NCBI RefSeq assembly: GCF_023630255.1
Contig: NZ_JALPRS010000001.1
Location: 806,001-870,000 of the forward strand
Direction of reading: 5' to 3'
Source of the DNA: Pontibacter deserti
GTDB lineage: Bacteria > Bacteroidota > Bacteroidia > Cytophagales > Hymenobacteraceae
DNA length: 64,000 nt
The translations under genes were made by a program, and so were the position numbers. This document shows, piece by piece, positions 1 through 51,021 of the stretch (within the stretch, counting starts at the first letter, position 1; each line of letters starts with the position of its first letter). Below the pieces are notes generated by a model that was not told where the DNA came from, searched no databases, and saw nothing but the letters and a program-made list of their open reading frames with translations.

Positions 1-210
1 CTTATACTTTTAAGAGCAACCCTGTAGTTATTGCTGGCTTTAAGTATTTGTTGGTAAATAGCTGAATTTGTTACTAAAAATAGTGCTGCGTTGTCACAGA
101 TTGCACAGCATCAAAGTATAAAAGTTTGTACATACACCGGTTGTTAGCGGCAAGAACCTGGGTTTGGAGGTTCCGGTACTACAGTCTTATTACTATATCT
201 ACTACATAAA

Positions 211-558
211 TTGAATAACATTAATCTTAAAACTGGATACCTGGTAGCTGCTTTCCCAAATTTTGAGTCAGCGTATGCAGCAACGGGAAAGTATTCAGAG
301 GATGGATACCGGATTGTGTATCTTAATGAAGTTGCCTGTATTCGAGATCGGGAAGTGGAGAGTTTTGTTTTAAAGCATCCTACACAGCAAGTATGCCTTT
401 ATCATAATTATCGTTTAGCGAAGCCCAGAAAACAAAAGCAAAGTGCTACAGAGAGTCTCCGATCTGCTTTAAAAGTTTTGGAGAAGAAAAATAAACAGCG
501 GGCTAAATTTGTTATGATTGTTTCCCAAAAATCGACCACGGCAAAAGCAGCGCTGTAA
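211..558 (+). CDS. hypothetical protein, 115 aa
   Basis: I do not recognise this protein. The reading frame is open from a stop at 145-147. No ATG lies near its 5' end, so a TTG at 211 is the likely start. The sequence is soluble and mildly basic. The N-terminal half is hydrophobic/mixed (KTGYLVAAFPNFESAYAATG), and the C-terminal half is a lysine- and arginine-rich helix (about residues 70-105). No signal peptide or membrane segment is visible. It stands alone, and a weak hairpin with a T-run lies about 100 bases downstream. It could be a small nucleic-acid-binding protein, but that is only a guess from charge. Confidence 0.5.
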   Translation: MNNINLKTGYLVAAFPNFESAYAATGKYSEDGYRIVYLNEVACIRDREVESFVLKHPTQQVCLYHNYRLAKPRKQKQSATESLRSALKVLEKKNKQRAKFVMIVSQKSTTAKAAL

Positions 559-659
559 TCACTAAGTAATTCAGAATTACCCAAGACTGTAAAAAATGGT
601 CTTTAATTTTAACTAAGTATGTTTTCTCTTAATGTGTACAAAGCTTCCTAATAGGAGGG

Positions 660-679
660 GGCTGTTCCTGGCAGCTTTT
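660..679 (+). terminator. weak possible terminator
   Basis: A short GC-rich stem (GCTG at 660-663 with CAGC at 671-674) is followed by five T. It lies 100 bases after the small gene at 211-558. The stem is only 4-5 bp. The rest of 559-1124 holds several TATACTT/AAGTATA motifs and no recognisable gene. Confidence 0.3.
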
Positions 680-1124
680 TGTTTCTTATACTTCAAGAGT
701 TAAAACTGCTTATACTTTGTTCAGCTGTCATCAGGATTTATCAGGTCACTATCTATTAATAGACTTTTACTGGTTGGTTAATAAACTGGATCACACAACT
801 GCTAATGCATAAGTAATTGTAGGGAATAAAAGTATAACTGAAATTTAGCACTACCTCAAATAGGATACTTTTATACTTTGTTAGAGAAGTATGCAACTAA
901 CAAACTATACTACTTCGTAATGGCTTGCAGAAGAGCCAGTTTCTGCAGGTTCTGGTTTGATGCGTTAATCTTCTTTATAGCTTACCAGGGTATAGAACTA
1001 TAAATCATAGTGCGCTCTTACAGCGTGCTTCAATAATAGTTTTGTATCGTAGATTTTATCACACAGCCTTTTGCGTCCTATTAATTATTAGCCCGCAATT
1101 GAGATAGTTGTCATAATTGTTAAA

Positions 1125-4100
1125 ATGAATCATACTCCAGATATATTCCGCCTTGTAATTGAAAAGTCTCAGGACGCAATATCACAGTGGAATAGAGAGT
1201 TTAAGCTCATTTTCGCAAATCAATCCTTTACCGAAAGTATAGGGATCACGGAAGATTTGCTGTTAGGTAAAACAATACTGGAGCTCAGCCAGCCTGAAAT
1301 ACCCACCCCCTGTACGAAAAAGCTAAAAGCAGTTTTTGAAACGGCCCAACCCCTTACGTATGAATTCGACTTTGCTACAAAAGCAGGAGATCTTATTTTT
1401 CAGTCTCAGCTGCTTCCTGAGCTGGCCGCAGATGGTACAGTGCAAAGCGTTCTGGTAATTAACCGGGATATTACGCTCCAGAGAAAAAGTGAACAAGCTC
1501 TAAAAAAATGTGAGGAAAACAGTCAGAGGTTATCTGAACTGGTAGAAAACATTCCCGACCCTTATCTCATTCTATATCCTGATGATACTATCTGCCAGGT
1601 AAGTGATGCCTACCTACAAGCTACGCTTACAAAGCGAAAGAGCATTATTGGCAAGAACCTATTTGATGTATTTCCCGACAACCCCGCTGCACCTGGTGCC
1701 AATGCTGTTAGAAATCTTCGTGCTTCTTTAGACCGGGTAAGGCAGACTAATAAGCCCCACCGCATGGCTATTCAGCAATACGATGTACCCCAGTCTGCTG
1801 AACTGGGTGGTGGTTTTGTAGTAAAATACTGGCTGCCGCTGAACACGCCCGTGCTCGATGAACAGGGCCAGCTACAGTACATCATCCATAAGGTAGAAGA
1901 TGTAACAGAAAAGATTTTAACAGAAAATAAACTGGCTCGGGAGTTTCGCCACCTGAAGGATGCACAGACAATGGGGCAAATAGGCAGCTTTGAGCATTTA
2001 TTGACTGAAAATATCATTACCTGCTCTAAGGAATGGTATCGCATTCATGGTCTGGAGTCACAGTCTGAGGTTGTCACCCTGGACAGGATGTACTCTTTCT
2101 TCCATCCGGAGGACTGGCAGGAATCTCGGGAGGCCATACACCATACCCTTACCACAGGAGATCACCTGCACCTGATCCACCGGATTGTACGGGCAGATGG
2201 CACCGTGCGGTTCGTACAGCGAAAGGCAGAGATATTGAATAATGAGCAGGGAACGCCTTACAAGGTCTATGGCACCATACAGGATATTACAGAACATGTA
2301 GAGGCCCAGAAAAAGGTAGAAGAACGGGAAGCCCTGTTACGGGCAACCGAAGAGGTGGCACAACTGGGTAGCTACGAACTGAACGTCGCCACCATGTCCT
2401 TCCGTTTTTCCGATGGCATGTACCGGCTGTTTGGCGAAGAGCCGCACACCTTTGTGCCGACATTAGCATTTCTTGACGAGCATACCCACCCCGATGATGT
2501 GCTGTTGGTAAAAGCTATACTTGATAAGGCCATACAGGATAAATCCACATACTACTACAACCGCCGCATTTGCCGCGCAGATGGTGAATGGAGAACACTG
2601 GAAGCCCGGGGAAGAGTAGAGTGTAACAATGCTGGTGAGGCGATAAAACTGATCGGGCTGGTGCAGGATGTAACAGACCGTAATAAAGCAGAGCAGGAAT
2701 TAAAGCAGAGCCGTAAGTTGCTGCAAACCACCATCGACAGCTCCCTCGACATGATCCAGGTGTTTGAAGCAGTTCGGAATGAGAATGGTGAGATCATCGA
2801 CTTTAAATGGATCTTAAATAACCATACTTCCGAAAAGATCTATGGCGATGTGCTCGGAAAAAACCTGCTGGAGTATAACCCGGGCGTGGTGGAGACAGGC
2901 ATATTTGATACTTTTAAACAGGTAGTGGAAACCGGCATCCCTGACCAGAGCGAGCGGCATTATGTGCACGAACAATTTGATGGCTGGTTCTTTCAGTCAA
3001 CAGTAAAGATGTATGACGGTGTTGCCACAACCACAAGAGATATAACCGAGCACAAAAGAGCCGAGCAAGAGCTTGAGGAAAGTAGAGCATTGTTTCAGTC
3101 TGTACTGAACAATACAGCAAGCAGTATCATGCTCCTGAAACCGGTACGGAATTCAGAAAATGCCATAATAGATTTTCAATACACATACACAAACGAGCAA
3201 ACCTTAAAATCTGTAAACCGCAGTTCACTTACCGGCAAATTTTTCACAGAGGAATTTCCTGAAGCGCAAAACTCTGACCTTTTTCAATACTATGCCCGGG
3301 TGATTGAAACTGGCGAAGAGTTCCATGATCAGGTAGATTTATCCTCCTTCGGCTTTCCGGTGTGGGCCCAGGTATTTGCTCAAAAACTGAACGATGTGTT
3401 GCTGGTGACTTATTTTGACATAACCGAACGCAAAAATGCAGAGCAGGAGCTTATTAGCACAAAAGAATTCCTGCAGGTTACCCTTGACACAACCTTGCAG
3501 GTGGTACAGGCATTTGAGGCGGTTAGGGACGAAGAAGGTAAGATCATTGACTTTGTCTGGATATATACTAATCAAAGGTGGAAGGAGCAGCATGGAGTCG
3601 AAATGGTTGGCAAGCGGATGTTGCAGGAGAACCCAGGTGTCATCGAAAGCGGCTTGTTCGAAAAGTTTATCCAGGTGACGGAAACAGGTGTGCCTTTGGA
3701 CCATGAACAGCATTATGCTTTCGAACAATTCGACGGCTGGTTCTTTCAAACTCTTGCCAAACTGGGCGATGGCTTTGTAATGACTACAGTTGATATAACC
3801 GAGCGCAAAAGAACCGAGCAGGAAATTCTTTTCCTTAAAGACGAGATAGCACAAAGATTCACTGATAAGTACTACTCAATTTTCAATGCCATTGATGAAG
3901 GCTTTTGTATTTATGAACTGGTGTACGACGATAAGGGGGAGCCGGTAGACCTCCGCTGGGTGGAAGTAAACCCTGCCTACGAAAAGCAAACGGGATTAAA
4001 AGACGTAGTAGGCATGTTGCACAGTGAGCTTTCATTGGCCACAGAAAAATATTGGCTTGAAATCTACGACAAGGTAGCTAAAACAGGAGAATCTACATAT

Positions 4101-6542
4101 TTTGAAAACTGGCACGAACCCACCCAACGTTGGTATTATGTTTTTGCTTCCCAGATTGGCGGAGAGGGTAGCCGGCAGGTAGCGGTTGTCTTCGAGGACA
4201 TCACCGAACGCAAACAACGGGAGCAACAGCAGGAATATTTGTTCAGAATAAATGATACCCTTCGCTCCAGGGGCACCTCCATCGAAATAGAAGAAACCAT
4301 TACCGCCTTGGCGATGGAGCACTTCGGTGTTGACCGGTGTTATTACTGCACCATTGAAGGCGACAGTTCCATCATTAGGCGCGATGCCCGCAGGGTAGGG
4401 CTGCAGTCCGCTGCCGGAAACTACCCTCTGAGCTCCTTTGCCCTGTTTAAAAAAGTGATTGACGGCGGTGCTCCTGTTATAGTGAACGACGCCCATTCCA
4501 CCCATCTGCTCGACGAGTCCTTGCGCGACCTGTGCCTTCAGTTGCAGGTGGTCTCCTTTGTGGATGTGCCGGTGATCAAAAACGGGAAAGTGGCCGGTAT
4601 CCTTTGTCTGGTGCAATCGACCCCACGGGTTTGGACAGAGGTGGACGTGCAATTGGCAGTGGAAACCGCCGAACGCACCTGGGCAGCGGTAGAAAGGGCA
4701 AGAACAGAAGAAGCTTTGCGTGAGAGCGAAGAAAAGTACCGCACTCTGTTCGACTCCATGGACGAAGGCTACTGCATCATTCAGATGTTGTATGATGAAG
4801 TCGGCAAAGCTATAGACTTCCGTTACTTGCAGGTAAATCAGGCCTTTGAACGCAACAACGGCTTACAGAATGCAGAAGGTAAAACCATCCGTGAACTGGC
4901 CCCAGACATAGAGCCGAAGTGGATAAACATTTACAACCAGGTTGCTCAATCAGGTATTCCACGCCGATTCGAGGAAGATTCTGAAGCTCTCCAACGTGTT
5001 TTCTCACTTTATGCTTTCCGTATCGGAGATCCTGCCGAACACAAAGTTGCTGTTATTTTCTCTGATATCACCGAGCACAAAAAAGGGCAACAAGCATTAC
5101 GCCAGTCAGAAGAGCAATTCAGGTTATTTGTTACTGCAAGTTCCGATATCATCTATAAAATGAATGCGGACTTGAGCCGTATGCACGAACTGACTGATAA
5201 AAACTTTCTGCCTGATACCGAAGAATCCGGTGATTCCTGGGTTGATATGTACATCCCTTCAGAGGACAGGCCATTAGTTGCTGCAGCAATACAGGAAGCC
5301 ATCCGGACAAAGAGCATCTTTGAACTGGAGCATAGAATAATCAAATCAGATGACACTATTGCCTGGATATCATCCCGCGCTATACCGGTCACAGATTGCC
5401 TAGGAAATATTATAGAGTGGTTCGGAACAGCTAGTGACATTTCCTTGCGCAAACAGGCCGAACAACAACTTCATAACCTGAATGTAACGTTGGAGCAACA
5501 GGTAACCGAGCGCACACATGAGCTTCATGAAAGCAAACAGCTGCTTCAAACTGTTTTTGATACAACGCTGATAGAAATGTCTATCCTGAAGGCAGTACGG
5601 GATGAACAGAGCAATATCCTTGACTTCAGGATTGAGCTGGTTAATAAAGAGCTTGAAAAGGAAACAGGACGTAAGGATCTGGTTGGTAAGCTTTACGCCG
5701 AAGAATACCCAAGTATAAAAACTACTGGCCTGTTTGATATAATGCTGCAGGTTATGGAGACAGGTCAACCAAAAGGAACGGAATATTATTTCCCCTATGA
5801 TGGCTTTAACAAGTGGTTCTCCTGCATGTTTGTACGGTTAAAGGATGGGCTGATAGCAACCAACCTGGACATTACAGAGCGAAAAAATGCAGAACTAAAA
5901 CACCTGAATTCAAAGTTACAGCAGCAAAAAGAGCTGCTTATAGCCATACTGGAAGCTCAGGAAGAAGAACGCAGTCGTATTTCAGAGTCTTTACATAATG
6001 GTGTCGCACAAATACTGTATGCTACAAAATTGCATGTAGAAGATTTGGTTAAGGAAGTGCCGGGAGAGTATGTGCAAAAACTGAATAAGCTGCTGCTAAA
6101 TGCTATAAGTGAGATCAGGAGGGTTTCGCATGAATTGGTGCCTTTAATTCTGAAAGACTTTGGCCTGAAGAGAGCAATAATGGATATGTGTGGGAGCCTT
6201 AAAAACAAGAGCCTGCAATTAGAGTGTGAAATAGAAAACTTTGAAACAGCATTAGATACATATTATGAACTGGTGCTGTACCGCATTAGCCAGGAATTAA
6301 TCAACAACATCCTGAAGCATTCTAAGGCTACTGAAGCTAAAATTCTGCTTTACCAGGAGGAAGATCTGGTTTATTTAAAAGTGAGGGATAACGGTATTGG
6401 TATGAAAGCAGCGGTAACAGAACATAAAGGAATAGGGCTGCGCAGCATTAGAGACAGGGTTAAATTGTTAAATGGTACCTTTGAAATTTCAGTACCTTCA
6501 TCAGGTAAGGGTACACAGGTCATCATCTCTATACCTATATAA
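1125..6542 (+). CDS. giant multi-PAS/GAF sensor histidine kinase, 1805 aa
   Basis: This is a histidine kinase that autophosphorylates and would pass phosphate to a separate response regulator. No receiver domain is fused to it. I count about eleven PAS domains (roughly residues 7-120, 130-260, 285-400, 405-515, 525-645, 655-775, 785-905, 915-1030, 1200-1320, 1325-1450, 1465-1590). Most end in the linker DITERK-xx-EQ. A GAF domain sits at about 1036-1195. The C-terminus is NarX/DegS-like: a HisKA_3 box (ERSRISESLHNGVAQ, His near 1623) and a HATPase (about 1705-1805, with DNGIGM and GIGLRSI). No signal peptide or clear membrane segment is visible, so it is probably cytoplasmic. Several PAS units are close copies of one another. 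No LuxR-type regulator lies next to it, so its partner is elsewhere. A strong hairpin terminator follows. Confidence 0.93.
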   Translation: MNHTPDIFRLVIEKSQDAISQWNREFKLIFANQSFTESIGITEDLLLGKTILELSQPEIPTPCTKKLKAVFETAQPLTYEFDFATKAGDLIFQSQLLPELAADGTVQSVLVINRDITLQRKSEQALKKCEENSQRLSELVENIPDPYLILYPDDTICQVSDAYLQATLTKRKSIIGKNLFDVFPDNPAAPGANAVRNLRASLDRVRQTNKPHRMAIQQYDVPQSAELGGGFVVKYWLPLNTPVLDEQGQLQYIIHKVEDVTEKILTENKLAREFRHLKDAQTMGQIGSFEHLLTENIITCSKEWYRIHGLESQSEVVTLDRMYSFFHPEDWQESREAIHHTLTTGDHLHLIHRIVRADGTVRFVQRKAEILNNEQGTPYKVYGTIQDITEHVEAQKKVEEREALLRATEEVAQLGSYELNVATMSFRFSDGMYRLFGEEPHTFVPTLAFLDEHTHPDDVLLVKAILDKAIQDKSTYYYNRRICRADGEWRTLEARGRVECNNAGEAIKLIGLVQDVTDRNKAEQELKQSRKLLQTTIDSSLDMIQVFEAVRNENGEIIDFKWILNNHTSEKIYGDVLGKNLLEYNPGVVETGIFDTFKQVVETGIPDQSERHYVHEQFDGWFFQSTVKMYDGVATTTRDITEHKRAEQELEESRALFQSVLNNTASSIMLLKPVRNSENAIIDFQYTYTNEQTLKSVNRSSLTGKFFTEEFPEAQNSDLFQYYARVIETGEEFHDQVDLSSFGFPVWAQVFAQKLNDVLLVTYFDITERKNAEQELISTKEFLQVTLDTTLQVVQAFEAVRDEEGKIIDFVWIYTNQRWKEQHGVEMVGKRMLQENPGVIESGLFEKFIQVTETGVPLDHEQHYAFEQFDGWFFQTLAKLGDGFVMTTVDITERKRTEQEILFLKDEIAQRFTDKYYSIFNAIDEGFCIYELVYDDKGEPVDLRWVEVNPAYEKQTGLKDVVGMLHSELSLATEKYWLEIYDKVAKTGESTYFENWHEPTQRWYYVFASQIGGEGSRQVAVVFEDITERKQREQQQEYLFRINDTLRSRGTSIEIEETITALAMEHFGVDRCYYCTIEGDSSIIRRDARRVGLQSAAGNYPLSSFALFKKVIDGGAPVIVNDAHSTHLLDESLRDLCLQLQVVSFVDVPVIKNGKVAGILCLVQSTPRVWTEVDVQLAVETAERTWAAVERARTEEALRESEEKYRTLFDSMDEGYCIIQMLYDEVGKAIDFRYLQVNQAFERNNGLQNAEGKTIRELAPDIEPKWINIYNQVAQSGIPRRFEEDSEALQRVFSLYAFRIGDPAEHKVAVIFSDITEHKKGQQALRQSEEQFRLFVTASSDIIYKMNADLSRMHELTDKNFLPDTEESGDSWVDMYIPSEDRPLVAAAIQEAIRTKSIFELEHRIIKSDDTIAWISSRAIPVTDCLGNIIEWFGTASDISLRKQAEQQLHNLNVTLEQQVTERTHELHESKQLLQTVFDTTLIEMSILKAVRDEQSNILDFRIELVNKELEKETGRKDLVGKLYAEEYPSIKTTGLFDIMLQVMETGQPKGTEYYFPYDGFNKWFSCMFVRLKDGLIATNLDITERKNAELKHLNSKLQQQKELLIAILEAQEEERSRISESLHNGVAQILYATKLHVEDLVKEVPGEYVQKLNKLLLNAISEIRRVSHELVPLILKDFGLKRAIMDMCGSLKNKSLQLECEIENFETALDTYYELVLYRISQELINNILKHSKATEAKILLYQEEDLVYLKVRDNGIGMKAAVTEHKGIGLRSIRDRVKLLNGTFEISVPSSGKGTQVIISIPI

Positions 6543-6560
6543 AGCAGGCACTACACAAAT

Positions 6561-6609
6561 AAAAGGATCAGTTATACTTTATTATTTTTAAAGTATAACT
6601 GATCCTTTT
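6561..6609. terminator. perfect 20-bp hairpin terminator
   Basis: AAAAGGATCAGTTATACTTT (6561-6580) pairs perfectly with 6590-6609 across a 9-nt AT loop. The stem is flanked by A and T runs, so it can act in both directions. It lies 18 bases after the giant kinase. The arms carry the TATACTT/AAGTATA motif that is common in this genome. Confidence 0.85.
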
Positions 6610-7145
6610 AAACAATTCCAGGGTCTTAATAAAAAGGGACTTCTTTATACTTAAGCCATTAACTGCACCTCACAAGACGCGCTGACCTAAACGTGATGTA
6701 ATAACCATGCGTTAAGAATACCTGCCTATACTTTACAAGATAACATCAGCCAGCGTTGCAGATATACGAAGCCAGTATACCGCATATAAATACTTTAAAG
6801 CCAAGTTGCCGCTAAGGCCTGACGACGATCAGGCGCCAGCTAATAATACCCTGACTTGTATGGCAATTGAGCTGAAATTGGAAAACTGCAGAACGCAAAA
6901 CTAACTATAACCTATATTTCAGGATTAAGCTGGCTTTTACTTTTATTAAAAACTAAATTGATAAGTAAAGGCATACGGCCATTATTCTGAGGTTTACAAA
7001 CTATGCACTTATTAACCAGCATGAAATGTATTAAACGCCCCTCTACCTATGCTTGTATTTTTAGAACTAGCCTGGTAAGTAACAAAAGAGCTTTAAAACT
7101 ACTTCATGATCGGCAAGAGATTAAAAATTATATACTTTTATCAAC
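6610..7145. other. gap without a supported gene
   Basis: This is AT-rich DNA between the kinase terminator and the 3' end of the amidohydrolase gene. It has scattered TATACTT copies. I see no gene, RNA or repeat array. A 73-codon frame starting at 7003 runs into the opposite-strand gene and shows no protein-like features. Confidence 0.5.
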
Positions 7146-7847: not shown

Positions 7848-7877
7848 AGTATTCAGCCAATGTTTAAGGAATTATAC

Positions 7878-19193: not shown

Positions 19194-19242
19194 GTAACTG
19201 AGCTATAAGTATAGTTACTCAAAAGTGCAACAAGTTAAAAAG

Positions 19243-19271
19243 AAGCCGCTCCATTTAATGTGGGGCGGCTT
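19243..19271 (+). terminator. terminator after alcohol dehydrogenase
   Basis: AAGCCGCTCCA (19243-19253) pairs with TGGGGCGGCTT (19261-19271), with one G-T wobble and a 7-nt loop, followed by TT. The left arm sequence AGCCGCTCCATTT recurs in the hairpin at 36536. The remaining bases up to 19522 hold two AAGTATA motifs and no gene. Confidence 0.85.
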
Positions 19272-19522
19272 TTCTGTATTTTCTATAGTAGTAGATCAAG
19301 TATAGAATTATCTACTATTATATACTGGATTTGACATCTGGTAAGGACTTATGATATCTAGTTAACTTTCCTTCAGTTCTGCATTAATATGATAGATAGT
19401 ACTAACAACCAATTACTACTTAGCTTACAAAACCAACTATAACTTTAACCACAAATTTTTCTGTTTAATTAAATCGATGTATAACTTGAGAGTTATTCTT
19501 TTGATGATAAAATACATACTAT

Positions 19523-20398
19523 ATGAATAAATTTACGCTCGGAGTTGACATTGGAGGCACACACATCACAGCTGCGGTTGTTGACCTTTCAAATCGTTCA
19601 ATAATTCAGGAAAGTATAACCCGTCAGGTTGTAGATGCAGGCGGAAGTATAGCAGATATAATTTCTGACTGGAGTAATGCCATGCGTGCTGCTATGGGAA
19701 AGTATAAAGCTGAAATAACCCAAGTTGGCATTGCTATGCCGGGCCCGTTTAACTATGAATGCGGTATTTCCCTGATGCAGAACCAGGACAAATATGATGC
19801 GCTTTATGGTATAAATGTAAAGGAACTGCTGGCGAAAGCTCTACACTTTGATATTCAAAATATAAGGTTTCAAAACGATGCCCCCTGCTTTTTACAAGGC
19901 GAGGCTTTTGCCGGCGCAGCACAAGGGTATGACAGGGCAATTGGCTTAACACTTGGTACCGGGCTGGGCTCAGCTGTTATTGTGGATGGCAAGGCGTGGG
20001 ACGCAAACTTATGGGATACACCATTTAATAGCAGTATAGCAGAGGAGTATTTAAGCTCGCGCTGGTTTGTGAAGCGGTATTATGAACTGAGCGGGAAAAG
20101 GACAAATAATGTAAAAAGTATAGTGGAGGAGATGCCTGCCGAACCAAAAGTGCAGGTGCTGTTTTCTGAGTATGCCGATAATCTATCTACCTTTTTAAGA
20201 GACTTTGTGAAACAGGAGCAACCGGAGGTAATTGTACTTGGTGGTAACATTACAAAAGCTTTCGATTTATTCGGAGATAAACTGCGTGAAAAGTTAAAAG
20301 AACAGAACATCACTATACCTATTAAAACAGCACAGCTAGGAGAAGAGGCAGCTTTGCTAGGTGCTGCCAGTTTGTGGGAGGAGAGGGCCAAAGTATAA
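19523..20398 (+). CDS. ROK-family sugar kinase
   Basis: This 291-aa protein has the ROK/ASKHA fold: phosphate-1 motif LGVDIGGTHITAAVVD at the N-terminus, AMPGPFNY, a catalytic-region Asp in FQNDAPCF, and LTLGTGLGSAV. The CxCGxxGCxE zinc motif typical of many ROK kinases is absent. It likely phosphorylates a hexose such as mannose, glucose or N-acylated hexosamine released by the neighbouring mannosidases; the substrate is inferred from context. It sits 75 bases upstream of a GH92 gene in the same direction, so co-transcription is likely. The stop codon lies inside an AAGTATAA motif. Confidence 0.88.
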   Translation: MNKFTLGVDIGGTHITAAVVDLSNRSIIQESITRQVVDAGGSIADIISDWSNAMRAAMGKYKAEITQVGIAMPGPFNYECGISLMQNQDKYDALYGINVKELLAKALHFDIQNIRFQNDAPCFLQGEAFAGAAQGYDRAIGLTLGTGLGSAVIVDGKAWDANLWDTPFNSSIAEEYLSSRWFVKRYYELSGKRTNNVKSIVEEMPAEPKVQVLFSEYADNLSTFLRDFVKQEQPEVIVLGGNITKAFDLFGDKLREKLKEQNITIPIKTAQLGEEAALLGAASLWEERAKV

Positions 20399-20473
20399 AA
20401 TTATACTATACAGAAATAAGTCTTAATTTTAGATATCACTCTAAATTATTCCCCTGCCTTAACAGCTTAACAA

Positions 20474-22792
20474 ATGAAAAAACTTGTACTCTCTGTTCTA
20501 CTGTTTTCTCCGCTACTAACTTTTGCACAAGCCAAACAGACGACTAACCTGGTAAAGTATGTCAATCCCATGATCGGTACGGCAAAAATGGGCCATACAT
20601 ACCCAGGGGCTACCGTACCTTTCGGCATGGTGCAACTAAGCCCCGACACCGACACGATACCTTACGAAGTGAATGGCAAGTATAACAAGGACGTTTACAA
20701 GTACTGCGCCGGCTACCAGCACGACGATAAAACGATTGTAGGTTTCAGTCACACGCATTTCAGCGGCACCGGACACTCTGACCTAGGCGATTTTCTGATT
20801 GCCCCAACAACAGGCAAATTGCAGCTGAACCCTGGTACAGAAGATAACCCTAAAAGCGGCTACCGTTCTGCTTTCTCACACGCCAACGAAGTTGCAGAAC
20901 CAGCCTACTATAAAGTAAAGCTCGACGACCACAACATCTTGGCAGAACTCACAGCTACCAACCGTGTGGGCATGCACCAGTATACTTTCCCGAAGTCTGA
21001 TGAGGCGCATATTATACTTGACCTGATGTCAGGTATTTACAACTACGACGGCAAAACCACCTGGACTTTTGTACGCGTGGAGAACGATACACTGATCACA
21101 GGTTACCGACAGACCAACGGCTGGGCACGCACCCGTACGGTATATTTTGCCATGGCCTTCAGCAAGCCGTTCAAACAGTATGGTAATAAGGATTATTCGG
21201 AGGCACAGGCATACAAAGGCTTCTGGCGCAAGTTTGATCAGACCAAAAACTTCCCGGAGTTCGCCGGCAAAAAGCTGCGGGCATACTTTGATTTCAAGAC
21301 AACTGAAGGGGAGAAGGTCAAGATCAAATTTGCGCTGTCGCCGGTGAGTACGGAAGGAGCTTTGGCAAACATGCGCGCCGAGATTCCGCACTGGGATTTC
21401 GACAGAGTAAAGCGCGAAGGACAAGCTGCCTGGAACAAGGAACTGAACAAAGTAGTGGTAGATGCCGGCAAGGATGACCTGGTGAATTTCTATACGGCCA
21501 TGTACCATTCTTTCCTGGGCCCGACTACTTATATGGATGTGGATGGCAAGTATAAAGGCCTTGACATGAACGTGCACCAGGCCAAAGACTTTACAAACTA
21601 TACCAGCTTCTCGCTCTGGGATACCTACCGCGCCCTGCACCCGCTATTTAACATACTGCAGCCTGCCCGCAACAACGACATGGTAAAATCTATGCTGGCG
21701 CACTACGACCAGAGCGTGCACAAAATGCTGCCGGTATGGTCGCACCACGCCAACGAGAACTGGTGTATGATCGGGTACCATTCGGTGCCTGTAATTGCTG
21801 ATGCCGTGATGAAAGGCAATGCTAATTTTGATGCAAATCGTGCGCTGGATGCCTGCGTACAAACTGCCCGAACACGCTACTACGACGGCCTGGAATACTA
21901 CATGCAGCTAGGTTATGTGCCGGAAGACAAAAACGGTTCATCAGTATCCAAAACACTTGAATATGCTTATGATGACTGGTGCATAGCGCAAATGGCCAAA
22001 AAACTGAACCGACGGGATATTTACGAAGAGTTCAGCAAGCGTGCGCTCAACTATAAGAATGTGTACGATGCGAAATCAGGTTATATGCGCCCTAAGTTGA
22101 GCGATGGTTCCTGGAAAAAAGAATTCGACCCGCTGGACACGCACGGGCAGGGCTTTATTGAAGGCAACTCCTGGAACTATAGTTTGTATGTACCACACGA
22201 CCCGGCCCAGATGATCTCAATGATGGGAGGAAAGGCCCGCTTTGCGCAGCACCTGGATTCACTTTTCACAATGGAACTTCCTGATAAGTACTTTGAGAAT
22301 ACAGAAGATATCTCCCGCGATGGCATCATTGGCAACTATGTGCACGGCAACGAACCATCTCACCATGTTGCTTATTTGTACAACTGGACCGATCAGCCCT
22401 GGAAAACACAAGAGCGTACGCGTATGGTTTTGAAAGCTATGTATAGACCAACTGTAGACGGCCTTGGCGGTAATGACGATTTTGGGCAGATGAGTGCGTG
22501 GTACATTTTTTCAGCTTTAGGGTTCTACCCTGTGGCTCCTGGCTCAGACCAGTATGCCATTACCAGTCCGGCCGTGAAGTCAGCAAGTATAAACCTGGAG
22601 AACGGCAAGACTTTTACTATTGAAGCGAAAAACCAGAAAGATAAAAACGTTTATATTCAGAAAATGGAGCTGAACGGCAAACCTATTAACCGGACCTACC
22701 TGACACACGCTGAGATCATGAATGGTGGGAAGATCATCTTTTACATGGGTAATAAGGCTAATAAGAAGCTAATGGCTGTTGCTCCTCAATAA
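20474..22792 (+). CDS. GH92 alpha-mannosidase, secreted
   Basis: This 772-aa family 92 glycoside hydrolase is a calcium-dependent exo-alpha-mannosidase that trims mannose from high-mannose N-glycans or fungal mannan. The signal peptide is MKKLVLSVLLFSPLLTFAQA. The N-terminal sandwich domain includes VNPMIGTAKMGHTYPGATVP and FSHTHFSGTGHSDLGDF. The catalytic barrel includes EGNSWNYS (the general acid Glu region) and GNDDFGQMSAWYIFSALGFYP (the catalytic Asp region). The THFSGTG motif is the form I associate with alpha-1,2-mannosidases, but linkage is not proven. It follows the ROK kinase and faces another GH92 gene across a bidirectional terminator. Confidence 0.95.
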   Translation: MKKLVLSVLLFSPLLTFAQAKQTTNLVKYVNPMIGTAKMGHTYPGATVPFGMVQLSPDTDTIPYEVNGKYNKDVYKYCAGYQHDDKTIVGFSHTHFSGTGHSDLGDFLIAPTTGKLQLNPGTEDNPKSGYRSAFSHANEVAEPAYYKVKLDDHNILAELTATNRVGMHQYTFPKSDEAHIILDLMSGIYNYDGKTTWTFVRVENDTLITGYRQTNGWARTRTVYFAMAFSKPFKQYGNKDYSEAQAYKGFWRKFDQTKNFPEFAGKKLRAYFDFKTTEGEKVKIKFALSPVSTEGALANMRAEIPHWDFDRVKREGQAAWNKELNKVVVDAGKDDLVNFYTAMYHSFLGPTTYMDVDGKYKGLDMNVHQAKDFTNYTSFSLWDTYRALHPLFNILQPARNNDMVKSMLAHYDQSVHKMLPVWSHHANENWCMIGYHSVPVIADAVMKGNANFDANRALDACVQTARTRYYDGLEYYMQLGYVPEDKNGSSVSKTLEYAYDDWCIAQMAKKLNRRDIYEEFSKRALNYKNVYDAKSGYMRPKLSDGSWKKEFDPLDTHGQGFIEGNSWNYSLYVPHDPAQMISMMGGKARFAQHLDSLFTMELPDKYFENTEDISRDGIIGNYVHGNEPSHHVAYLYNWTDQPWKTQERTRMVLKAMYRPTVDGLGGNDDFGQMSAWYIFSALGFYPVAPGSDQYAITSPAVKSASINLENGKTFTIEAKNQKDKNVYIQKMELNGKPINRTYLTHAEIMNGGKIIFYMGNKANKKLMAVAPQ

Positions 22793-22803
22793 GCAATGTA
22801 ATA

Positions 22804-22847
22804 ATAAAACAAAAAGGCCTGCAGCAATGTAGGCCTTTTTGTTTTAT
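22804..22847. terminator. bidirectional terminator between convergent GH92 genes
   Basis: ATAAAACAAAAAGGCCT (22804-22820) pairs perfectly with 22831-22847 across a 10-nt loop. The A and T runs on both sides suit termination from both strands. It lies between the stops of the two GH92 genes. Confidence 0.9.
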
Positions 22848-22868
22848 ACTTTACTTTATAGTTCTTTA

Positions 22869-43279: not shown

Positions 43280-43281
43280 CT

Positions 43282-44542: not shown

Positions 44543-47500
44543 TGTACTTAACCAGGTTTGAGCTACTGTACCAACTGCGCAAGCCCTTAACCTATGTGGC
44601 GTTGCTAAGCTTTTTGCTCTTCGGCTTTATGATGGGGAGTGTGCGCCATTTACCTTATCCGGATGTGTACCGCAATGCTCCATACAGCATTACCTACATG
44701 GTTGGCATTCTGACTTTAGGTATAATTTTCCCGGTAACAGTAACAGTAGCTCAGTCATTCCTGAAAGACAGGGAGTTTAAGTTTGAGGGAATCTTATATG
44801 CAACACCTATAGGCAAAAGCAGTTACCTGTCTAGTCAGTTTATAGCCTTATTTGGTACATCATTATTTATACTTTGTGTTGGCGCTTTGGGGATCCTGAT
44901 TGGGGCTTACATGCCATGGTTGCCTGCCGCAGAGCGTGGGTCGTTTACAGCAATCCATTACGTATGGCCTGTACTTGTTCTTGCCATTCCGAACATCATT
45001 TTATGCATAGCTTTTACAGCCAGCATTGCATGGTTAAGCAAAAGTTCATTGGGTGTGTACACTGCTGGCTTATTGTTATACATCTTATACATTACAGGCT
45101 CCATTTTCTCTAACTCGCCCCTTATGGCTGGTGCTTCTCCTGCATCTCCTGAAGCAATGGCTCTGATGGCAAAATTAGATCCCTTCGGACTAGCCGCCTT
45201 TTTCGAACAAACCCGTTACTGGACAATAGAAAACCGCAATGCTAACCTTTTAAAGTTGAGTGGTAATTTCATGATCAATAGGATTCTATGGCTGGGAGTT
45301 TCTATAGTTATAGTTGCTTTATCTTATAGAATATTCTCCTTCAGAAGTATAAAAACTTCTGCGCCCAAGAAAGGAAGTAAACTAAAAGCTGTCGAAGAGT
45401 TGCCTGCTACCTATAAGCCTATCAATGTTGAGTTAAAATCATCAATTCATATCCTAAAAAGTAGCTGGAGCCTGACAAGAATTGATCTGAGCCAGGTGGT
45501 GAGGGGAATACCATTTGTACTAATTCTTCTGATGGTAACAGGGCTTTTGATAATTGAAACGGCTAACAAAATAGACGGTGGGACGCGCTTTGCTGCACAC
45601 TTTGCACATTCCAGTTTAATGGCAACAGCCATTTTCGAAACGGTGCCTTTCATGGGTACTCTTATACTTCTGTTTTATAGCAGCGAATTGCTGTGGAAGA
45701 GCAAGAGCGTTAATTTTCTTGCTATAGTTAGTTCTACTCCGGTTTCCAATGTTGCCCTTTATCTTTCAAAACTGATAACTCTTGGTCTGATCGTTTTTGG
45801 GTTAGTGTTATGGAGTGTGGTGGTAGCAGTGGCGGTGCAGTTTTACTACCAGTATACGATTATAGAATGGCAGGTGTATACTTCGCTGTTATACTACATT
45901 GGGTTGCCCTTAGTGCTTTTAACCATCCTGTTGCTGTTTGTGCAGAACCTGTTTGCAAACAAGTACCTGGCATTGTTAGCCAGTGCTATAGTTGTTTTGC
46001 TTCTTAACAGTAAGTTAGGAGTGGCTCTAGGAATCAAACACCCGTTGCTCCGTTTTGCCAATACCCTGGAAGTACCCTTGTTTCAGATGAACGGCTTTGA
46101 CAACTATGGTATGGCCTTCCGTTGGCAGATGTTTCATGAAATTTCGGTAGCTGTTATACTTCTGATTATTACCGTAATGCTATGGAACAGAAATCAGGTA
46201 GCAACTCTTATTCGCCGCACGCGTGGTGTAAGGTTTAATCCGGCTGCTACTGTATTAATTGGATTTGCTGCAGTACTGTTGCTTTCTAGTTCTGTTTTTA
46301 TTTACCGGCAGGTAGCTGCCGATCCAGAAAGTATAAACCAAAAGGAAAAGTTTGACTGGCGGTACGCATATGAGCTGAAGTATAAAACGTATGAAAGCCT
46401 TCCGCAGCCATCCATCACCCATGTCACCACCACCATCGATTTATATCCGGGTGAGCATCGTTACGAAGTAAAAGGGAAGTATAAAGCAGTCAACAGGGAA
46501 GCAGTAAGTATAGATAGCCTGTTGATTTCTGTTGACCAAAATATTGAGCTTACTTCCCTGAAAATTGAAAATGCCAGCCTGGTTAGGGAAGACAAAGCGT
46601 TCGGACATAACATTTACTATTTGCGAAAACCACTGGTGCCGCAGGACAGCATCACGATAGCGTTTAGCTTTACAGCTGCCTGGTCACCTTTACAGCAGCA
46701 CGTGCCTACCAATGCTATTCTATCTAATGGGTCATTTATGAGGATCAGCAGGTATTTCCCTGTTTTGGGCTATCAACCAGAAAATGAAATAGACAACGTG
46801 AAGGAAAGGCTGGAGCGGGGACTACCTGAACAGGAACCTTTAAGGCACGCACTTGCTGATGCGCTTGATGATTACCAGTTTATTATACTGGATGCTGTGG
46901 TATCGACAGACGAAGACCAAACTCCCTTAGGAGTCGGTGAACTAGTAGGAAGCTGGAAGAAGCAAGGTAGAAACTATGCACGTTTTAAAACTGATCGCCC
47001 GATACCTTTTCGTTTTGCAGTAGCCTCTGCCAAGTACAAAGTGAAAAAAGATAGCTTTCAGGACATTGCTATAGAAGTGTATTATGACGCCCGGCACTAC
47101 CAGAATGTAGATAGGCTGATTGAAAATGCGAAAGCAACCTTAGCATACGGGCATAATAATTTCGGACCCTTTCCCCATAAAAGCATACGGTTTGCTGAAA
47201 TTTCATCTTATGCTACAGGCTTTGCCGCTACAGCTTATCCTACCATTATTTTTTCCAAAGAAGACCAAGGCTTTCAGGCAGATTTGCGCAAAGGAGATGA
47301 ACAGGATATAACCAACCAGTTGGCAGGCCATGAACTGGCGCATTTGTGGTGGGGGAGTGCACAAGTTAACCCCGACATTCGGGAAGGCCACAGCTTGATG
47401 ACAGAGACGTTGGCACAGTACACAGAACTCATGCTCTACCGCAGAGCACACGGCTTTACAAAAAGTCTGGAGCTTTTAAAAGTGCACCTGGACTTATACT

Positions 47501-48084
47501 TAAGCAGTAGGGGCTACGACCCGGAGATGCCTCTTTACAAGGTTGATTTTGAGAGTCCGCATATAGTCTACAACAAAGGTATGGTAGTGATGCACCAACT
47601 GGAGCAGCTGATAGGCGAGACCAAGGTGAATGAGGCCTTGAAAGCCTTTTACTGCAAGTATAAATTTCCGAATCCGGCTCCAAGATCTACTGATCTGTTA
47701 AACTGTTTTTATGCTGTAGCTCCTGCTAGTGCACATGCCAAAATAGATGAACTGTTCAAGCAAATTATCACTTATGACGCCAAAGTTGAAGGTGTAAGTA
47801 TCAGAAAGCAACCGGATGGCACTTATGAAACAATCTTTACGGCAAGCATTCAAAAGTATAGCACAACAGAGAAAGGGAAAAAGTATACGATAGCTCCTGA
47901 TCCATTTCTGGAAGTTGGCGTGATGACCTCAAAAGGCAATCAGGTTGTAAAGCGGTTCCGGGTGCAAAACAGCAGGATTACAGGTACTTTTTTAACCTCT
48001 AAAAAGCCACAACTCCTGGTACTTGATCCACTACTGAAAAACATGGAAGTATTTCCAAAAGATAATGAAAAGGTAATTCCTTAA
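44536..48084 (+). CDS. ABC permease fused to M1 aminopeptidase domain (system 2)
   Basis: This 1182-aa protein has the same layout as 13237-16824: membrane helices at about residues 15-265 and 310-575, then an M1-type peptidase domain (about 620-1175). The zinc motif HELAHLWWG is intact, with the third ligand Glu in SLMTETLAQYTEL. The aminopeptidase half most likely faces the periplasm. Overall similarity to system 1 is clear, but the sequences have diverged well beyond a recent duplication. A start at the ATG two codons on (44542) is possible. It is followed after 45 bases by a WD40 lipoprotein gene in the same direction, which may belong to the system. Confidence 0.93.
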   Translation: MLMYLTRFELLYQLRKPLTYVALLSFLLFGFMMGSVRHLPYPDVYRNAPYSITYMVGILTLGIIFPVTVTVAQSFLKDREFKFEGILYATPIGKSSYLSSQFIALFGTSLFILCVGALGILIGAYMPWLPAAERGSFTAIHYVWPVLVLAIPNIILCIAFTASIAWLSKSSLGVYTAGLLLYILYITGSIFSNSPLMAGASPASPEAMALMAKLDPFGLAAFFEQTRYWTIENRNANLLKLSGNFMINRILWLGVSIVIVALSYRIFSFRSIKTSAPKKGSKLKAVEELPATYKPINVELKSSIHILKSSWSLTRIDLSQVVRGIPFVLILLMVTGLLIIETANKIDGGTRFAAHFAHSSLMATAIFETVPFMGTLILLFYSSELLWKSKSVNFLAIVSSTPVSNVALYLSKLITLGLIVFGLVLWSVVVAVAVQFYYQYTIIEWQVYTSLLYYIGLPLVLLTILLLFVQNLFANKYLALLASAIVVLLLNSKLGVALGIKHPLLRFANTLEVPLFQMNGFDNYGMAFRWQMFHEISVAVILLIITVMLWNRNQVATLIRRTRGVRFNPAATVLIGFAAVLLLSSSVFIYRQVAADPESINQKEKFDWRYAYELKYKTYESLPQPSITHVTTTIDLYPGEHRYEVKGKYKAVNREAVSIDSLLISVDQNIELTSLKIENASLVREDKAFGHNIYYLRKPLVPQDSITIAFSFTAAWSPLQQHVPTNAILSNGSFMRISRYFPVLGYQPENEIDNVKERLERGLPEQEPLRHALADALDDYQFIILDAVVSTDEDQTPLGVGELVGSWKKQGRNYARFKTDRPIPFRFAVASAKYKVKKDSFQDIAIEVYYDARHYQNVDRLIENAKATLAYGHNNFGPFPHKSIRFAEISSYATGFAATAYPTIIFSKEDQGFQADLRKGDEQDITNQLAGHELAHLWWGSAQVNPDIREGHSLMTETLAQYTELMLYRRAHGFTKSLELLKVHLDLYLSSRGYDPEMPLYKVDFESPHIVYNKGMVVMHQLEQLIGETKVNEALKAFYCKYKFPNPAPRSTDLLNCFYAVAPASAHAKIDELFKQIITYDAKVEGVSIRKQPDGTYETIFTASIQKYSTTEKGKKYTIAPDPFLEVGVMTSKGNQVVKRFRVQNSRITGTFLTSKKPQLLVLDPLLKNMEVFPKDNEKVIP

Positions 48085-48129
48085 CGCTTGTTCGTGTCAT
48101 CACATTCATCAATTTTCTAATCAACTTTT

Positions 48130-49197
48130 ATGAAAAAATCATCTTTTAAGGTATTTGTAAGCAGAAAGCATTTGCTTATACTTTTTGCGCTGCTTCTTGG
48201 CTCCAATATACTCTTCTCCTGTAATGCCCAATCCCCTGAAACTAAAGGAAAAATGGCTACGCTGTATCAGGCCTATCAGATGCATAAGGCAAGTATATGG
48301 GATGTAAAATTTAGTCCTGACAGTAAATACCTGGCCAGCGCAAGTATAGATAGCACAGCTAAGATTTTTCTGGTGGAGAATGGCCAGGTTGTGCAGAATT
48401 TAAAGCACCCTATAGGCGTTACATCCATTGCTTTTAGTCCCGATGGAGCCTATGTAGTGACCAGTTGCTACGACGCTATAATCAGGCTATGGCGGGTTGC
48501 AGACGGGGCGCTCGTCAGAACTTATTTAGGACACGAAAATACGGTTTGGGACGTAACTTTTAGCCCGGATGGAAGCATGTTAGCAAGTTGCGGAGAAGAT
48601 AAAAAAATTAGGTTGTGGAATGTTGAAAGCGGTGCATTGATAAAGGCATTTGAAGGACATACCTTAAATATTTGGTCTGTGGCTTTTAGTCCGGATGGGC
48701 ATACTTTGGCAAGCGGCAGCTTTGATGCAACTGTAAAGGTTTGGGATGTACAAACTGGTAAATCATTAACTACACTATCTGACCATAAACAAGCCATCAT
48801 CTCAGTTGCTTTTAGTCCTGATGGTACAAAGCTGGCTAGTGGCAGCGATGATAAATCCGTGAAAATCTGGAGTACTTATGACTGGCGTTTACAACAGGGT
48901 TTAACAGGAGGAGCTGAGTGTGTCTATTCCGTCGCTTTTAGCCCCGACGGAAAATATTTACTGAGTGGCAGCCGGGACAAAGGACCTATTGGTGAGCTTA
49001 TACAAAATGTCTTTGGCCATTCAGAAGTGAACAAGGAAACAACTGTCCGGCTCTGGGACATAGAAAATGGAAGGCTTTTAGATGCGTATTCTGAGAATGC
49101 AAACGAAGTGAATGCGGTTGCTTTTAGCAATGATGGAAAATGGATGGCAAGTGGAAGCCAAGACAAAAAAGTCGTGGTTTGGCGGTTTTTAAAGTAG
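48130..49197 (+). CDS. WD40-repeat lipoprotein
   Basis: This 355-aa protein has a lipoprotein signal (LLILFALLLGSNILFSC, Cys at about 31), then seven WD40 repeats filling residues 50-355, enough for one closed propeller. Repeats carry the core xVAFSPDGxxLASGSxDxxVxxW. Blade 6 has an insertion of about 20 residues (GPIGELIQNVFGHSEVNKET). The last blade ends at the C-terminus. WD40 propellers act as protein-binding platforms; this one is anchored in the inner or outer membrane. It lies 45 bases after the ABC-M1 permease gene without a terminator, so it may be a periplasmic subunit or docking protein of that system (inference). Confidence 0.92.
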   Translation: MKKSSFKVFVSRKHLLILFALLLGSNILFSCNAQSPETKGKMATLYQAYQMHKASIWDVKFSPDSKYLASASIDSTAKIFLVENGQVVQNLKHPIGVTSIAFSPDGAYVVTSCYDAIIRLWRVADGALVRTYLGHENTVWDVTFSPDGSMLASCGEDKKIRLWNVESGALIKAFEGHTLNIWSVAFSPDGHTLASGSFDATVKVWDVQTGKSLTTLSDHKQAIISVAFSPDGTKLASGSDDKSVKIWSTYDWRLQQGLTGGAECVYSVAFSPDGKYLLSGSRDKGPIGELIQNVFGHSEVNKETTVRLWDIENGRLLDAYSENANEVNAVAFSNDGKWMASGSQDKKVVVWRFLK

Positions 49198-50725: not shown

Positions 50726-50735
50726 ATGATTATAA

Positions 50736-50762
50736 AAGGCAGACTAGTTAATGGTCTGCCTT
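50736..50762 (+). terminator. terminator after aldo/keto reductase
   Basis: AAGGCAGAC (50736-50744) pairs perfectly with GTCTGCCTT (50754-50762) across a 9-nt loop. ATTTAAAA follows. Confidence 0.8.
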
Positions 50763-50841
50763 ATTTAAAAATATGGTGTTGGTTTGGTTTCTTTCCTAGG
50801 CACAAGTTCTGCTCCAGAAGACTTGCTGAAAAATATTGCCT

Positions 50842-50982
50842 ATGTACACTCCTCCGACCTCTTTCAACAATGCAGAAGAGCAAGGACCAACTTTCAAGTA
50901 TACTTACACAGATGACCAGCCTTTTCAGCCAGATACAGCAGTTTTTGGAGCAAAAAGAAAAAGGGAAAAGCGATCTAAATAA
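50842..50982 (+). CDS. small protein or gene remnant, 46 aa
   Basis: ATG at 50842 opens 46 codons ending TAA at 50980-50982. The product begins MYTPPTSFNNAEEQGPTFKY and ends in a basic tail KRKREKRSK. The frame is closed upstream by a TGA a few codons before. A good terminator hairpin overlaps the stop codon, which argues that something is transcribed and ends here. It is either a genuine small basic protein or the tail of a lost gene. No family is recognised. Confidence 0.4.
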   Translation: MYTPPTSFNNAEEQGPTFKYTYTDDQPFQPDTAVFGAKRKREKRSK

Positions 50983-50996
50983 TCACTTTTCCCTTT
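50960..50996 (+). terminator. terminator at the edge of the accessory region
   Basis: AAAGGGAAAAGCGA (50960-50973) pairs with TCACTTTTCCCTTT (50983-50996), with one mismatch and a 9-nt loop. It ends the 46-codon ORF and is the last core-like feature before the integrase. Confidence 0.75.
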
Positions 50997-51021
50997 CAGT
51001 AGTCCGTAGGGCAACATCATA

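What the first reader, a model, noticed from the sequence alone, without database searches (positions are those of the whole stretch)
1..51000. AAGTATA/TATACTT is strongly over-represented in the core and nearly absent from the accessory region
Between 19,207 and 22,851 I can place 13 copies (19207, 19298, 19612, 19645, 19700, 20116, 20391, 20678, 20981, 21013, 21548, 22585, 22845), where chance predicts about one or fewer for a 7-mer on two strands. They occur in both orientations, in coding and non-coding DNA, in terminator arms (6571, 6590) and at gene ends. From 51.2 to 55.3 kb I found none, and from 55.3 to 64 kb fewer than ten. It may be a DNA-uptake-like, Chi-like or structural signature of this genome that newly acquired DNA lacks.
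Basis: seen in the sequence. Interest (0 to 1): 0.7.

Follow-up and report, generated by a model that had tools for sequence, protein, structure and literature searches.

The report
Genome-wide dialect word in Pontibacter
The bacterium this stretch comes from, and most of its relatives in the genus Pontibacter, carry one or two of three related seven-letter DNA words thousands of times per genome; the pattern resembles the "own DNA" tags that some unrelated bacteria use when taking up DNA, but what reads the word here is unknown.

Summary
The window lies in a Pontibacter genome (nearest named relative P. ruber). AAGTATA occurs 103 times in the window (12.4 expected from dinucleotides) and 9,116 times in the genome, against 558 for the reversed word. 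Codon usage does not explain it: in 451 kb examined, 719 coding copies against 132 after synonymous shuffling, in excess in all six frames. There is no replication polarity (745:748), so it is not Chi- or KOPS-like.

The word is one dialect of A[A/G][G/C]TATA. Of 50 Pontibacter genomes, 19 have AAGTATA, 12 AGGTATA (one clade), 4 AACTATA, 4 both AAG and AAC (this one included) and 11 no strong word. Sites are conserved 1.2-2.25-fold above background within a dialect, not outside it, and switch by turnover. No other genus in a 390-genome order sample shows comparable AAGTATA enrichment.

It works like a DNA uptake sequence with dialects, but no pilus ATPase was found in 50 genomes, no receptor was found, and competence genes persist in motif-less species. 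A HIP1-like signal remains a serious rival.

The parts
1..51000 (.). Region carrying the motif: 95 AAGTATA and 40 AACTATA copies, both strands, genes and spacers
19207..22851 (.).
6560..6610 (.). 22-bp hairpin without mismatch, a copy of the motif in each arm (6573 -, 6591 +), just downstream of the ORF ending at 6542; terminator-like
45345..48348 (.). Second dense stretch: 15 AAGTATA copies, 12 of them inside the 1182-aa ORF 44536-48084 (M1-peptidase match)
51216..64000 (.). Accessory island (tyrosine integrase at 51216-52403, KAP NTPase, SIR2-like protein): 8 AAGTATA, 3 AACTATA and 4 AGGTATA copies in 51-64 kb

Best explanation
The word works like a DNA uptake sequence. In Pontibacter an unidentified envelope protein preferentially binds DNA carrying A[A/G][G/C]TATA(A/G) and feeds it to a pilus-independent transformation pathway (ComEA-like HHH protein, ComEC, recombination). 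Because fragments with the word are taken up and recombined more often, copies accumulate wherever proteins tolerate them; this is molecular drive rather than a role for each copy. When the receptor's preference shifts by one base, the new word fills in at new places and the old one decays, giving clade-specific dialects and, for a time, bilingual genomes like this one. SHOWN here: over-representation beyond codon usage, strand symmetry, clade-congruent dialects, dialect-dependent conservation, turnover, depletion in the window's island and in AT-rich stretches, presence of ComEC and HHH genes. INFERRED: the receptor, biased uptake, drive, and any role in isolating species.
For: 9,116 copies in 4.15 Mb, equal on both strands. 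Excess in all six reading frames over a synonymous shuffle. No leading-strand bias, 745:748. Three one-base dialects whose distribution follows the tree: AGG in one clade of 12; the four AAC genomes group with three of the four bilingual ones in both trees, with the fourth (G043) in one tree only. In these eight genomes AAG+AAC stays between 14,145 and 16,784 while the mix changes. Site conservation in 12 genes, at 76-80% identity: 2.2x background between AAG genomes, 0.81x towards other dialects, 0.32x towards motif-less genomes. New-dialect sites arise at new places: of 23 AAG sites of this genome only 1 is AAC in G083. Motif-poor island and AT-rich stretches. ComEC domain in 50 of 50 and an HHH protein of 304-346 aa with an open frame in 49 of 50 genomes. 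Riemerella, also Bacteroidota, transforms naturally without pilus genes (PMC8459023, passages and section 19 read), and a section of a second paper reports preference of R. columbina for its own DNA (PMC7965970, passages). Neisseriaceae DUS show the same clade-congruent dialects and a genome with two dialects at once (PMC3630211, passages).
Against: No PilB/PilT-type ATPase was found: PF00437 matched all 50 genomes only over a short P-loop stretch (about 19-26 bits; 3 of 50, this genome among them, over the 24.9-bit cut-off), and this genome's best match is an SF1 helicase; pili are part of every DUS/USS system I know of (recalled). ComEC and the HHH protein are kept in motif-less species, and motif-rich G046 (9,303 AGG copies) has an interrupted ComEC frame, which may be decay or assembly error. 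DUF5689, a domain of the proposed Riemerella DNA binder, is in 17 of 39 motif-bearing and 5 of 11 motif-less genomes, and this genome's copy sits in a SusC/SusD nutrient-type locus. DNA near sites is not homogenised: third-position divergence is higher close to sites (0.33) than far away (0.25-0.27). Unlike one DUS genome, overlapping dyads are not preferred here. Two full-text searches found no paper joining Pontibacter with competence or uptake sequences.
Confidence: 0.5

Rival explanations
1. HIP1-like signal: the word is the site of a stably inherited DNA methylase or other cytoplasmic DNA-binding protein (repair, nucleoid or segregation), and genome-wide selection or biased repair maintains it. 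A change of the protein's specificity gives the dialects.
For: HIP1 is highly frequent in cyanobacteria, is replaced by alternate words in some genomes, and these go with matching methylases (PMC4390886, abstract and passages). Clade-wide inheritance fits a core protein. No pilus ATPase was found.
Against: HIPs are palindromic and GC-rich; AAGTATA is neither. Several losses within the genus would need repeated loss of a core factor. Cognate methylases were not surveyed here.
Confidence: 0.27
2. Recombination or replication signal of the Chi or KOPS kind.
For: Frequent, and rare in an integrase-bearing island.
Against: No polarity: AAGTATA 745:748 and AACTATA 476:463 on leading:lagging strand in 32 of 40 own segments (8 with skew under 0.01 dropped). 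One-base dialects within a genus and this density are unlike Chi (recalled).
Confidence: 0.05
3. Context-dependent mutation bias or repair error that creates the word, without any function.
For: Copies lie in weakly constrained places: denser outside ORFs (3.25/kb against 1.9/kb) and in locally faster-evolving DNA.
Against: Existing copies are conserved 1.2-2.25-fold above background within a dialect, which needs maintenance as well as creation; all seven positions matter; the island lags; the preference changes by discrete single bases.
Confidence: 0.1
4. Codon or dipeptide usage (Lys-Tyr and the like).
For: The word can be read as Lys-Tyr in one frame.
Against: Excess in all six frames over shuffles that keep each protein and its codons (719 against 132), and 235 copies outside ORFs against 27 expected.
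Confidence: 0.01

Closest known systems
DNA uptake sequences (DUS) and their dialects in Neisseriaceae (Frye et al. 2013, PMC3630211; passages seen)
   Same: Short word, thousands of copies, dialects one or few bases apart around a fixed core, dialects congruent with phylogeny, a genome with two dialects in near-equal numbers
   Different: 7-8 bases instead of 10-12 (12 recalled); other phylum; no type IV pilus ATPase and no ComP-like receptor found; overlapping dyads, noted in one DUS genome, are not preferred here; no uptake experiment exists
Uptake signal sequences (USS) of Pasteurellaceae
   Same: Same kind of genome-wide tag with lineage types (recalled; PMC12616744 seen only as a listing with the start of its abstract)
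   Different: Longer motif with flanking segments (recalled); pilus-based uptake (recalled)
HIP1 and alternate HIPs of cyanobacteria (Elhai 2015, PMC4390886; abstract and passages seen)
   Same: High frequency, alternate words in some genomes, low or absent in others
   Different: Palindromic, GC-rich and linked to methylases; AAGTATA is AT-rich and not palindromic
Pilus-independent natural transformation of Riemerella (PMC8459023, PMC7965970; passages and one section seen)
   Same: Bacteroidota; ComEC and HHH proteins; no pilus genes; R. columbina is reported to prefer its own DNA
   Different: No uptake sequence established there: the authors list frequent k-mers (A-rich in the part I saw) and leave their function open

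Membership tests
DUS/USS uptake sequences | Non-palindromic word over-represented on both strands beyond composition and codon usage | tested here: met
DUS/USS uptake sequences | No replication-strand polarity | tested here: met
   745:748 and 476:463 in 32 of 40 segments
DUS/USS uptake sequences | Lineage dialects with shared core, congruent with phylogeny | tested here: met
   G043 unstable between trees
DUS/USS uptake sequences | Sparse in recently acquired DNA | tested here: met
   one island, P = 2e-8; five segments under 40% GC: 1.0-2.4/kb, median of 44 segments 3.8; phages and plasmids not examined
DUS/USS uptake sequences | Type IV pilus uptake machine | tested here: not met
   PF00437 only short matches of about 19-26 bits, 3 of 50 over the cut-off; this genome's match is an SF1 helicase. 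The matches in the other 49 genomes were not examined further
DUS/USS uptake sequences | ComEC and periplasmic HHH (ComEA-like) protein | tested here: inconclusive
   ComEC domain in 50 of 50 (frame interrupted in G046 and G087), HHH protein open in 49 of 50; motif-less genomes included, so not discriminating
DUS/USS uptake sequences | Dedicated sequence-specific receptor | tested here: inconclusive
   DUF5689 candidate did not track the word; no unbiased gene search was possible
DUS/USS uptake sequences | Preferential uptake of DNA carrying the word | not testable with these tools
   needs an experiment
HIP1-like palindromes | Palindromic, GC-rich word | tested here: not met
   AAGTATA, AGGTATA and AACTATA are neither; flanks add no palindrome
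HIP1-like palindromes | Cognate DNA methylase | not tested
   no genome search was left for methylase families
Chi / KOPS | Orientation bias with replication | tested here: not met
Terminator repeats | Systematic inverted pairs | tested here: not met
   neighbouring copies within 60 bp, same-strand pairs 172; inverted pairs 134 after removing the 82 overlaps at 3 bp

The most novel reading that the evidence does not exclude
The first DNA uptake sequence system in Bacteroidota: a pilus-independent transformation machine with its own sequence-specific receptor, whose one-base changes of taste rewrote up to about 15,000 sites per genome and split Pontibacter into at least three sexually isolated dialect groups, with bilingual genomes (this one included) caught in transition and several lineages that lost the language.
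Probability: 0.42. Interest if true: 0.92.

Novelty: new variant of a known kind. Interest (0 to 1): 0.77.

Why it matters
Genome-wide tags with dialects are known to me from two proteobacterial families that use type IV pili, and from cyanobacteria (HIP1, function open). A further kind, in a phylum whose transformation machine is barely known and has no pilus, would suggest that self-recognition of DNA evolved more than once. It would also give a handle, through dialect switches and repeated losses, for finding the receptor by comparing genomes. Bilingual sister species let the speed and mechanism of a dialect switch be measured.

Tried and rejected
Codon usage or AT content: rejected (451 kb of this genome, island left out). 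Chi/KOPS polarity: rejected. Terminator or inverted-pair role: one clear hairpin, but inverted pairs are not in excess. Palindromic overlaps (AASTATASTT): 82 against 25 expected by random placement, but given a shared TATA core there are 356 strand-counted overlaps against about 627 expected from the marginals (my arithmetic), so there is no dyad preference; the comparison printed for this is confounded, because its "other" class contains reverse-strand motifs, and is not used. In-place dialect switching: rejected. DUF5689 as receptor: this genome's copy is in a nutrient-type SusCD locus, and the family is present in motif-less genomes too. ComEC and HHH as discriminating genes: present almost everywhere. 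PF00437 match of this genome: an SF1 helicase. Homogenisation of DNA near sites: not seen, the opposite trend; the control words of that call gave small, mixed samples. Other words in motif-less genomes: in samples of 20-80 kb per genome none stands out like the three words, except CTATATA in G002 (48 in 80 kb, 12.7 expected) and perhaps G113.

Limits. In one search pairs are not independent, bilingual genomes were left out, motif-less genomes were used only as targets, and pairs under 72% identity were dropped. Dialect classes use thresholds I chose; G113 (3,132 AGG) and G105 (2,905 AAG) are counted as motif-less but are weakly enriched. The trees are FastTree trees of one gene cluster; outgroups fill about 30% of columns, and G043 and G095/G105 change place between the two trees. 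The name Pontibacter for the tool's genus g1 rests and on one contig-length match (2,015,371 bases, P. indicus). Outside the genus only AAGTATA was counted in whole genomes.
Full report
THE OBSERVATION. AAGTATA occurs 103 times in the window, 55 on + and 48 on -. A first-order Markov model expects 12.4, and it is the top 7-mer of the window by that measure; the maximal-order model, which takes its 6-mers as given, expects 88.7, because the 6-mers AAGTAT and AGTATA carry the excess. Forward positions: 114, 830, 1235, 5711, 6591, 7827, 10578, 12296, 12502, 15103, 17855, 19207, 19298, 19612, 19645, 19700, 20116, 20391, 20678, 21548, 22585, 24944, 28668, 31906, 32620, 33196, 35132, 36657, 36896, 38293, 38884, 39487, 39640, 39910, 41879, 43813, 45345, 46329, 46378, 46477, 46506, 47656, 47854, 47881, 48291, 48342, 50519, 50718, 50896, 56178, 57283, 57984, 62930, 63559, 63647. 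Reverse: 3, 687, 711, 872, 2516, 6573, 6646, 6727, 7131, 7604, 7873, 9015, 9126, 13301, 14505, 15046, 16679, 20981, 21013, 22845, 24060, 25329, 28247, 28854, 32051, 32371, 32581, 33120, 35765, 36385, 37957, 40088, 40248, 41326, 42956, 43380, 43506, 43837, 44200, 44868, 45663, 45877, 46155, 47495, 48177, 50899, 61274, 62182.

GENOME-WIDE. The whole genome (4,149,358 bases, 7 contigs) has 4,541 + 4,575 copies, while the word read backwards has 305 + 253. The organism is a Pontibacter: the nearest named genome is P. ruber, 87% identical over 1,190 residues of one protein. In named loci of 16-24 kb: AAGTATA 39 in P. ruber (2.5 expected), 36 in P. anaerobius (3.0), 19 in P. cellulosilyticus (3.8); AGGTATA 35 in P. 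indicus (1.5) and 28 in P. lucknowensis (1.5, with 8 AAGTATA, 1.7 expected); both AGGTATA 18 (2.3) and AAGTATA 13 (3.1) in Pontibacter sp. FD36. P. ummariensis has no excess, P. pamirensis 4 AGGTATA (1.1) and little else. In eight loci of other genera the counts are 0-8, the highest relative to expectation being 5-8 AGGTATA in two Rufibacter loci (0.8-1.4) and 6 AAGTATA in Sabulibacter (1.6).

NOT CODONS, NOT POLARITY. In window 1-51 kb plus 20 stretches of 20 kb (378,683 bp of ORFs and 72,317 bp outside ORFs), AAGTATA is found 719 times in ORFs against 131.7 after shuffling synonymous codons within genes (20 shuffles), and each of the six strand-and-frame classes exceeds its shuffle. Outside ORFs there are 235 against 27.3 expected. 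On the leading strand (by sign of GC skew) there are 745 copies and on the lagging strand 748; AACTATA gives 476 and 463 (32 of 40 segments, 8 with skew under 0.01 left out, as were the window and the 5.5-kb contig). Spacing is near Poisson, with an excess of 3-bp overlaps and of gaps over 1 kb. All seven positions matter: in 884 kb of this genome AAGTATA has 1,934 and AACTATA 1,217 copies, while each other single-base variant of either has 39-549; the eighth base is mostly A or G.

DIALECTS. Unbiased k-mer counts in 20-kb samples showed that Pontibacter genomes poor in AAGTATA can be rich in AGGTATA or AACTATA. Whole-genome counts in all 50 Pontibacter genomes held give, by my thresholds: 19 AAG, 12 AGG, 4 AAC, 4 bilingual and 11 without a strong word. 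The highest is 13,168 AACTATA in G083, 3.0 per kb of a 4.34-Mb contig. On a tree of 12 genes of the cell-division (murG) region the AGG genomes form one clade whose sister is an AAG genome, and the AAC and bilingual genomes group together; G043, the bilingual genome with least AAC, moves away in the second tree. Rooted with 7 genomes of five other genera, motif-less lineages are nested among motif-bearing ones, which suggests an AAG ancestor and several losses (parsimony gives 3 changes of presence and 7 changes for the five classes on the first, unrooted tree). In the eight AAC or bilingual genomes the sum AAG+AAC runs from 14,145 to 16,784 while AAG ranges from 10,614 (G043) down to 1,956 (G112). 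Outside the genus, no genome of a 390-genome order sample (129 genera, Pontibacter included) exceeds about 2.5 times the reversed control for AAGTATA; the highest are genus g3 (G003, 2.5) and G318 (2.4). AGGTATA and AACTATA were not counted in whole genomes outside the genus.

TURNOVER AND MAINTENANCE. In codon alignments of 12 genes, 23 AAG sites of this genome correspond in G083 to 2 AAG, 1 AAC, 1 AGG, 5 one-mismatch and 14 other sequences: the switch is mostly not in place. Conservation relative to same-GC 7-mers of the same genes, at 76-80% identity: AAG between AAG genomes 2.2 (1,236 of 2,724 sites), towards other dialects 0.81 (295 of 1,829), towards motif-less genomes 0.32 (71 of 1,232). 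Over all identity bins the within-dialect ratios are 1.21-2.2 for AAG, 1.45-1.8 for AAC and 1.45-2.25 for AGG, with the lowest values among the most similar pairs; outside the dialect they are 0.05-0.11 for AAC, 0.38-0.49 for AGG and 0.32-0.90 for AAG (pairs are not independent). So AAG looks ancestral, AGG and AAC derived, and only the current word of a lineage is maintained. Sites lie in locally faster-evolving DNA (third-position divergence 0.33 within 15 bp, 0.25-0.27 beyond 300 bp, 37 close pairs; control words gave small, mixed samples).

ACQUIRED DNA. The island from 51.2 kb starts with a tyrosine integrase and carries a KAP NTPase and a SIR2-like protein; 51-64 kb has 8 copies with 3.8 expected, against 95 with 8.7 expected in the rest. 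Five of 44 own-genome segments are under 40% GC (one is a quarter of the window, its last by composition); they have 1.0-2.4 AAG+AAC copies per kb, while the median is 3.8, although the word itself is AT-rich (Spearman 0.35, P = 0.019). One of them, L098, holds sugar-nucleotide epimerase and sugar-transferase genes.

MACHINERY. PF00437 (PilB/PilT) gives only short P-loop matches of about 19-26 bits in all 50 genomes, 3 over the 24.9-bit cut-off, this genome's being the best; that protein is an SF1 helicase (AAA_11/AAA_12). I take type IV pilus ATPases as absent; the matches in the other genomes were not looked into one by one. The ComEC domain is in 50 of 50, with interrupted frames in G046 and G087. 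HHH_3 matches are in 50 of 50; a protein of 304-346 aa is open in 49 and interrupted in G087, and it is syntenic in the five genomes compared. Riemerella transforms without pili; its essential genes include ComEC, DprA, ComF, RecA, an HHH protein and further novel proteins, one with DUF5689 (PMC8459023, passages and section 19). DUF5689 is in 22 of 50 Pontibacter genomes (17 of 39 motif-bearing, 5 of 11 motif-less); this genome's copy lies beside SusC, SusD, PLD-type, phosphoesterase and GDPD genes, so it looks like a scavenging locus.

INTERPRETATION. The pattern matches Neisseriaceae DUS closely: clade-congruent dialects with a shared core, bilingual genomes and very high density. There the highest reported is nearly 6,000 copies in 2.4 Mb, about 2.5% of the genome (PMC3630211, passages); here G083's 13,168 seven-letter copies amount to 2.1% of its letters. 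I therefore say it works like an uptake sequence. I do not file it as a member, because the pilus machine was tested and not met and uptake is untested. HIP1, with alternate words tied to methylases (PMC4390886, abstract and passages), is the main rival; against it stand the lack of a palindrome and the AT-rich word, but cognate methylases were not surveyed.

LITERATURE. Full-text searches for AAGTATA (82 papers; the 20 listed look unrelated by title), "uptake sequence" with Pontibacter (0), "natural competence" with Pontibacter (0), "DNA uptake sequences" with Cytophagales (1, on an earthworm symbiont, listing only), "uptake signal sequence" with Bacteroidota (0), "DNA uptake sequence" with Bacteroidetes and overrepresented (0), and "natural transformation" with Bacteroidetes and "uptake signal" (2, unrelated by title) found no report of this motif. 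The library holds open-licence PMC papers only.

Noticed in passing
window 20474-42401: Three GH92 proteins, a GH125 alpha-mannosidase and an outer-membrane beta-barrel protein lie in one region, perhaps for mannan or N-glycan degradation.
   Followed up: no
window 51216-63148: Integrase-led island with KAP NTPase and SIR2-like proteins, a possible defence cargo.
   Followed up: no
L101, L141, L168, L169 (G002); L147 (G113): The motif-less genome G002 is rich in CTATATA (48 in 80 kb, 12.7 expected), G113 perhaps too (11 in 20 kb, 1.7 expected): possibly a further word.
   Followed up: partly
genome G087: ComEC and the HHH protein both have interrupted frames in this single-contig assembly, whose AAG count (5,476) is lower than in all eight genomes of its sister clade (6,185-11,818); decay of competence or sequencing error.
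   Followed up: no
genome G046: ComEC frame interrupted by one stop although the genome is rich in AGGTATA (9,303).
   Followed up: no
L220:5649-15525; L229:4470-13012: SusC/SusD loci with a DUF5689 protein; the one in this genome also has PLD-type, phosphoesterase and GDPD genes: perhaps phosphate or nucleic-acid scavenging.
   Followed up: partly
12 genes of the murG region in 35 single-dialect genomes: Third codon positions diverge more close to motif sites than far from them; either sites settle in loose DNA or the neighbourhood mutates faster.
   Followed up: partly
L091 (own genome, C1:410-430 kb): Motif-poor, AT-rich stretch with a long one-strand gene run; of five proteins scanned one is trypsin-like, one weakly PP2C-like and three have no Pfam match.
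   Followed up: no
this genome, AGGTATA: This genome has 2,584 AGGTATA copies, more than the other AAG-bearing genomes (1,014-2,211), so a third word may be weakly favoured here.
   Followed up: no
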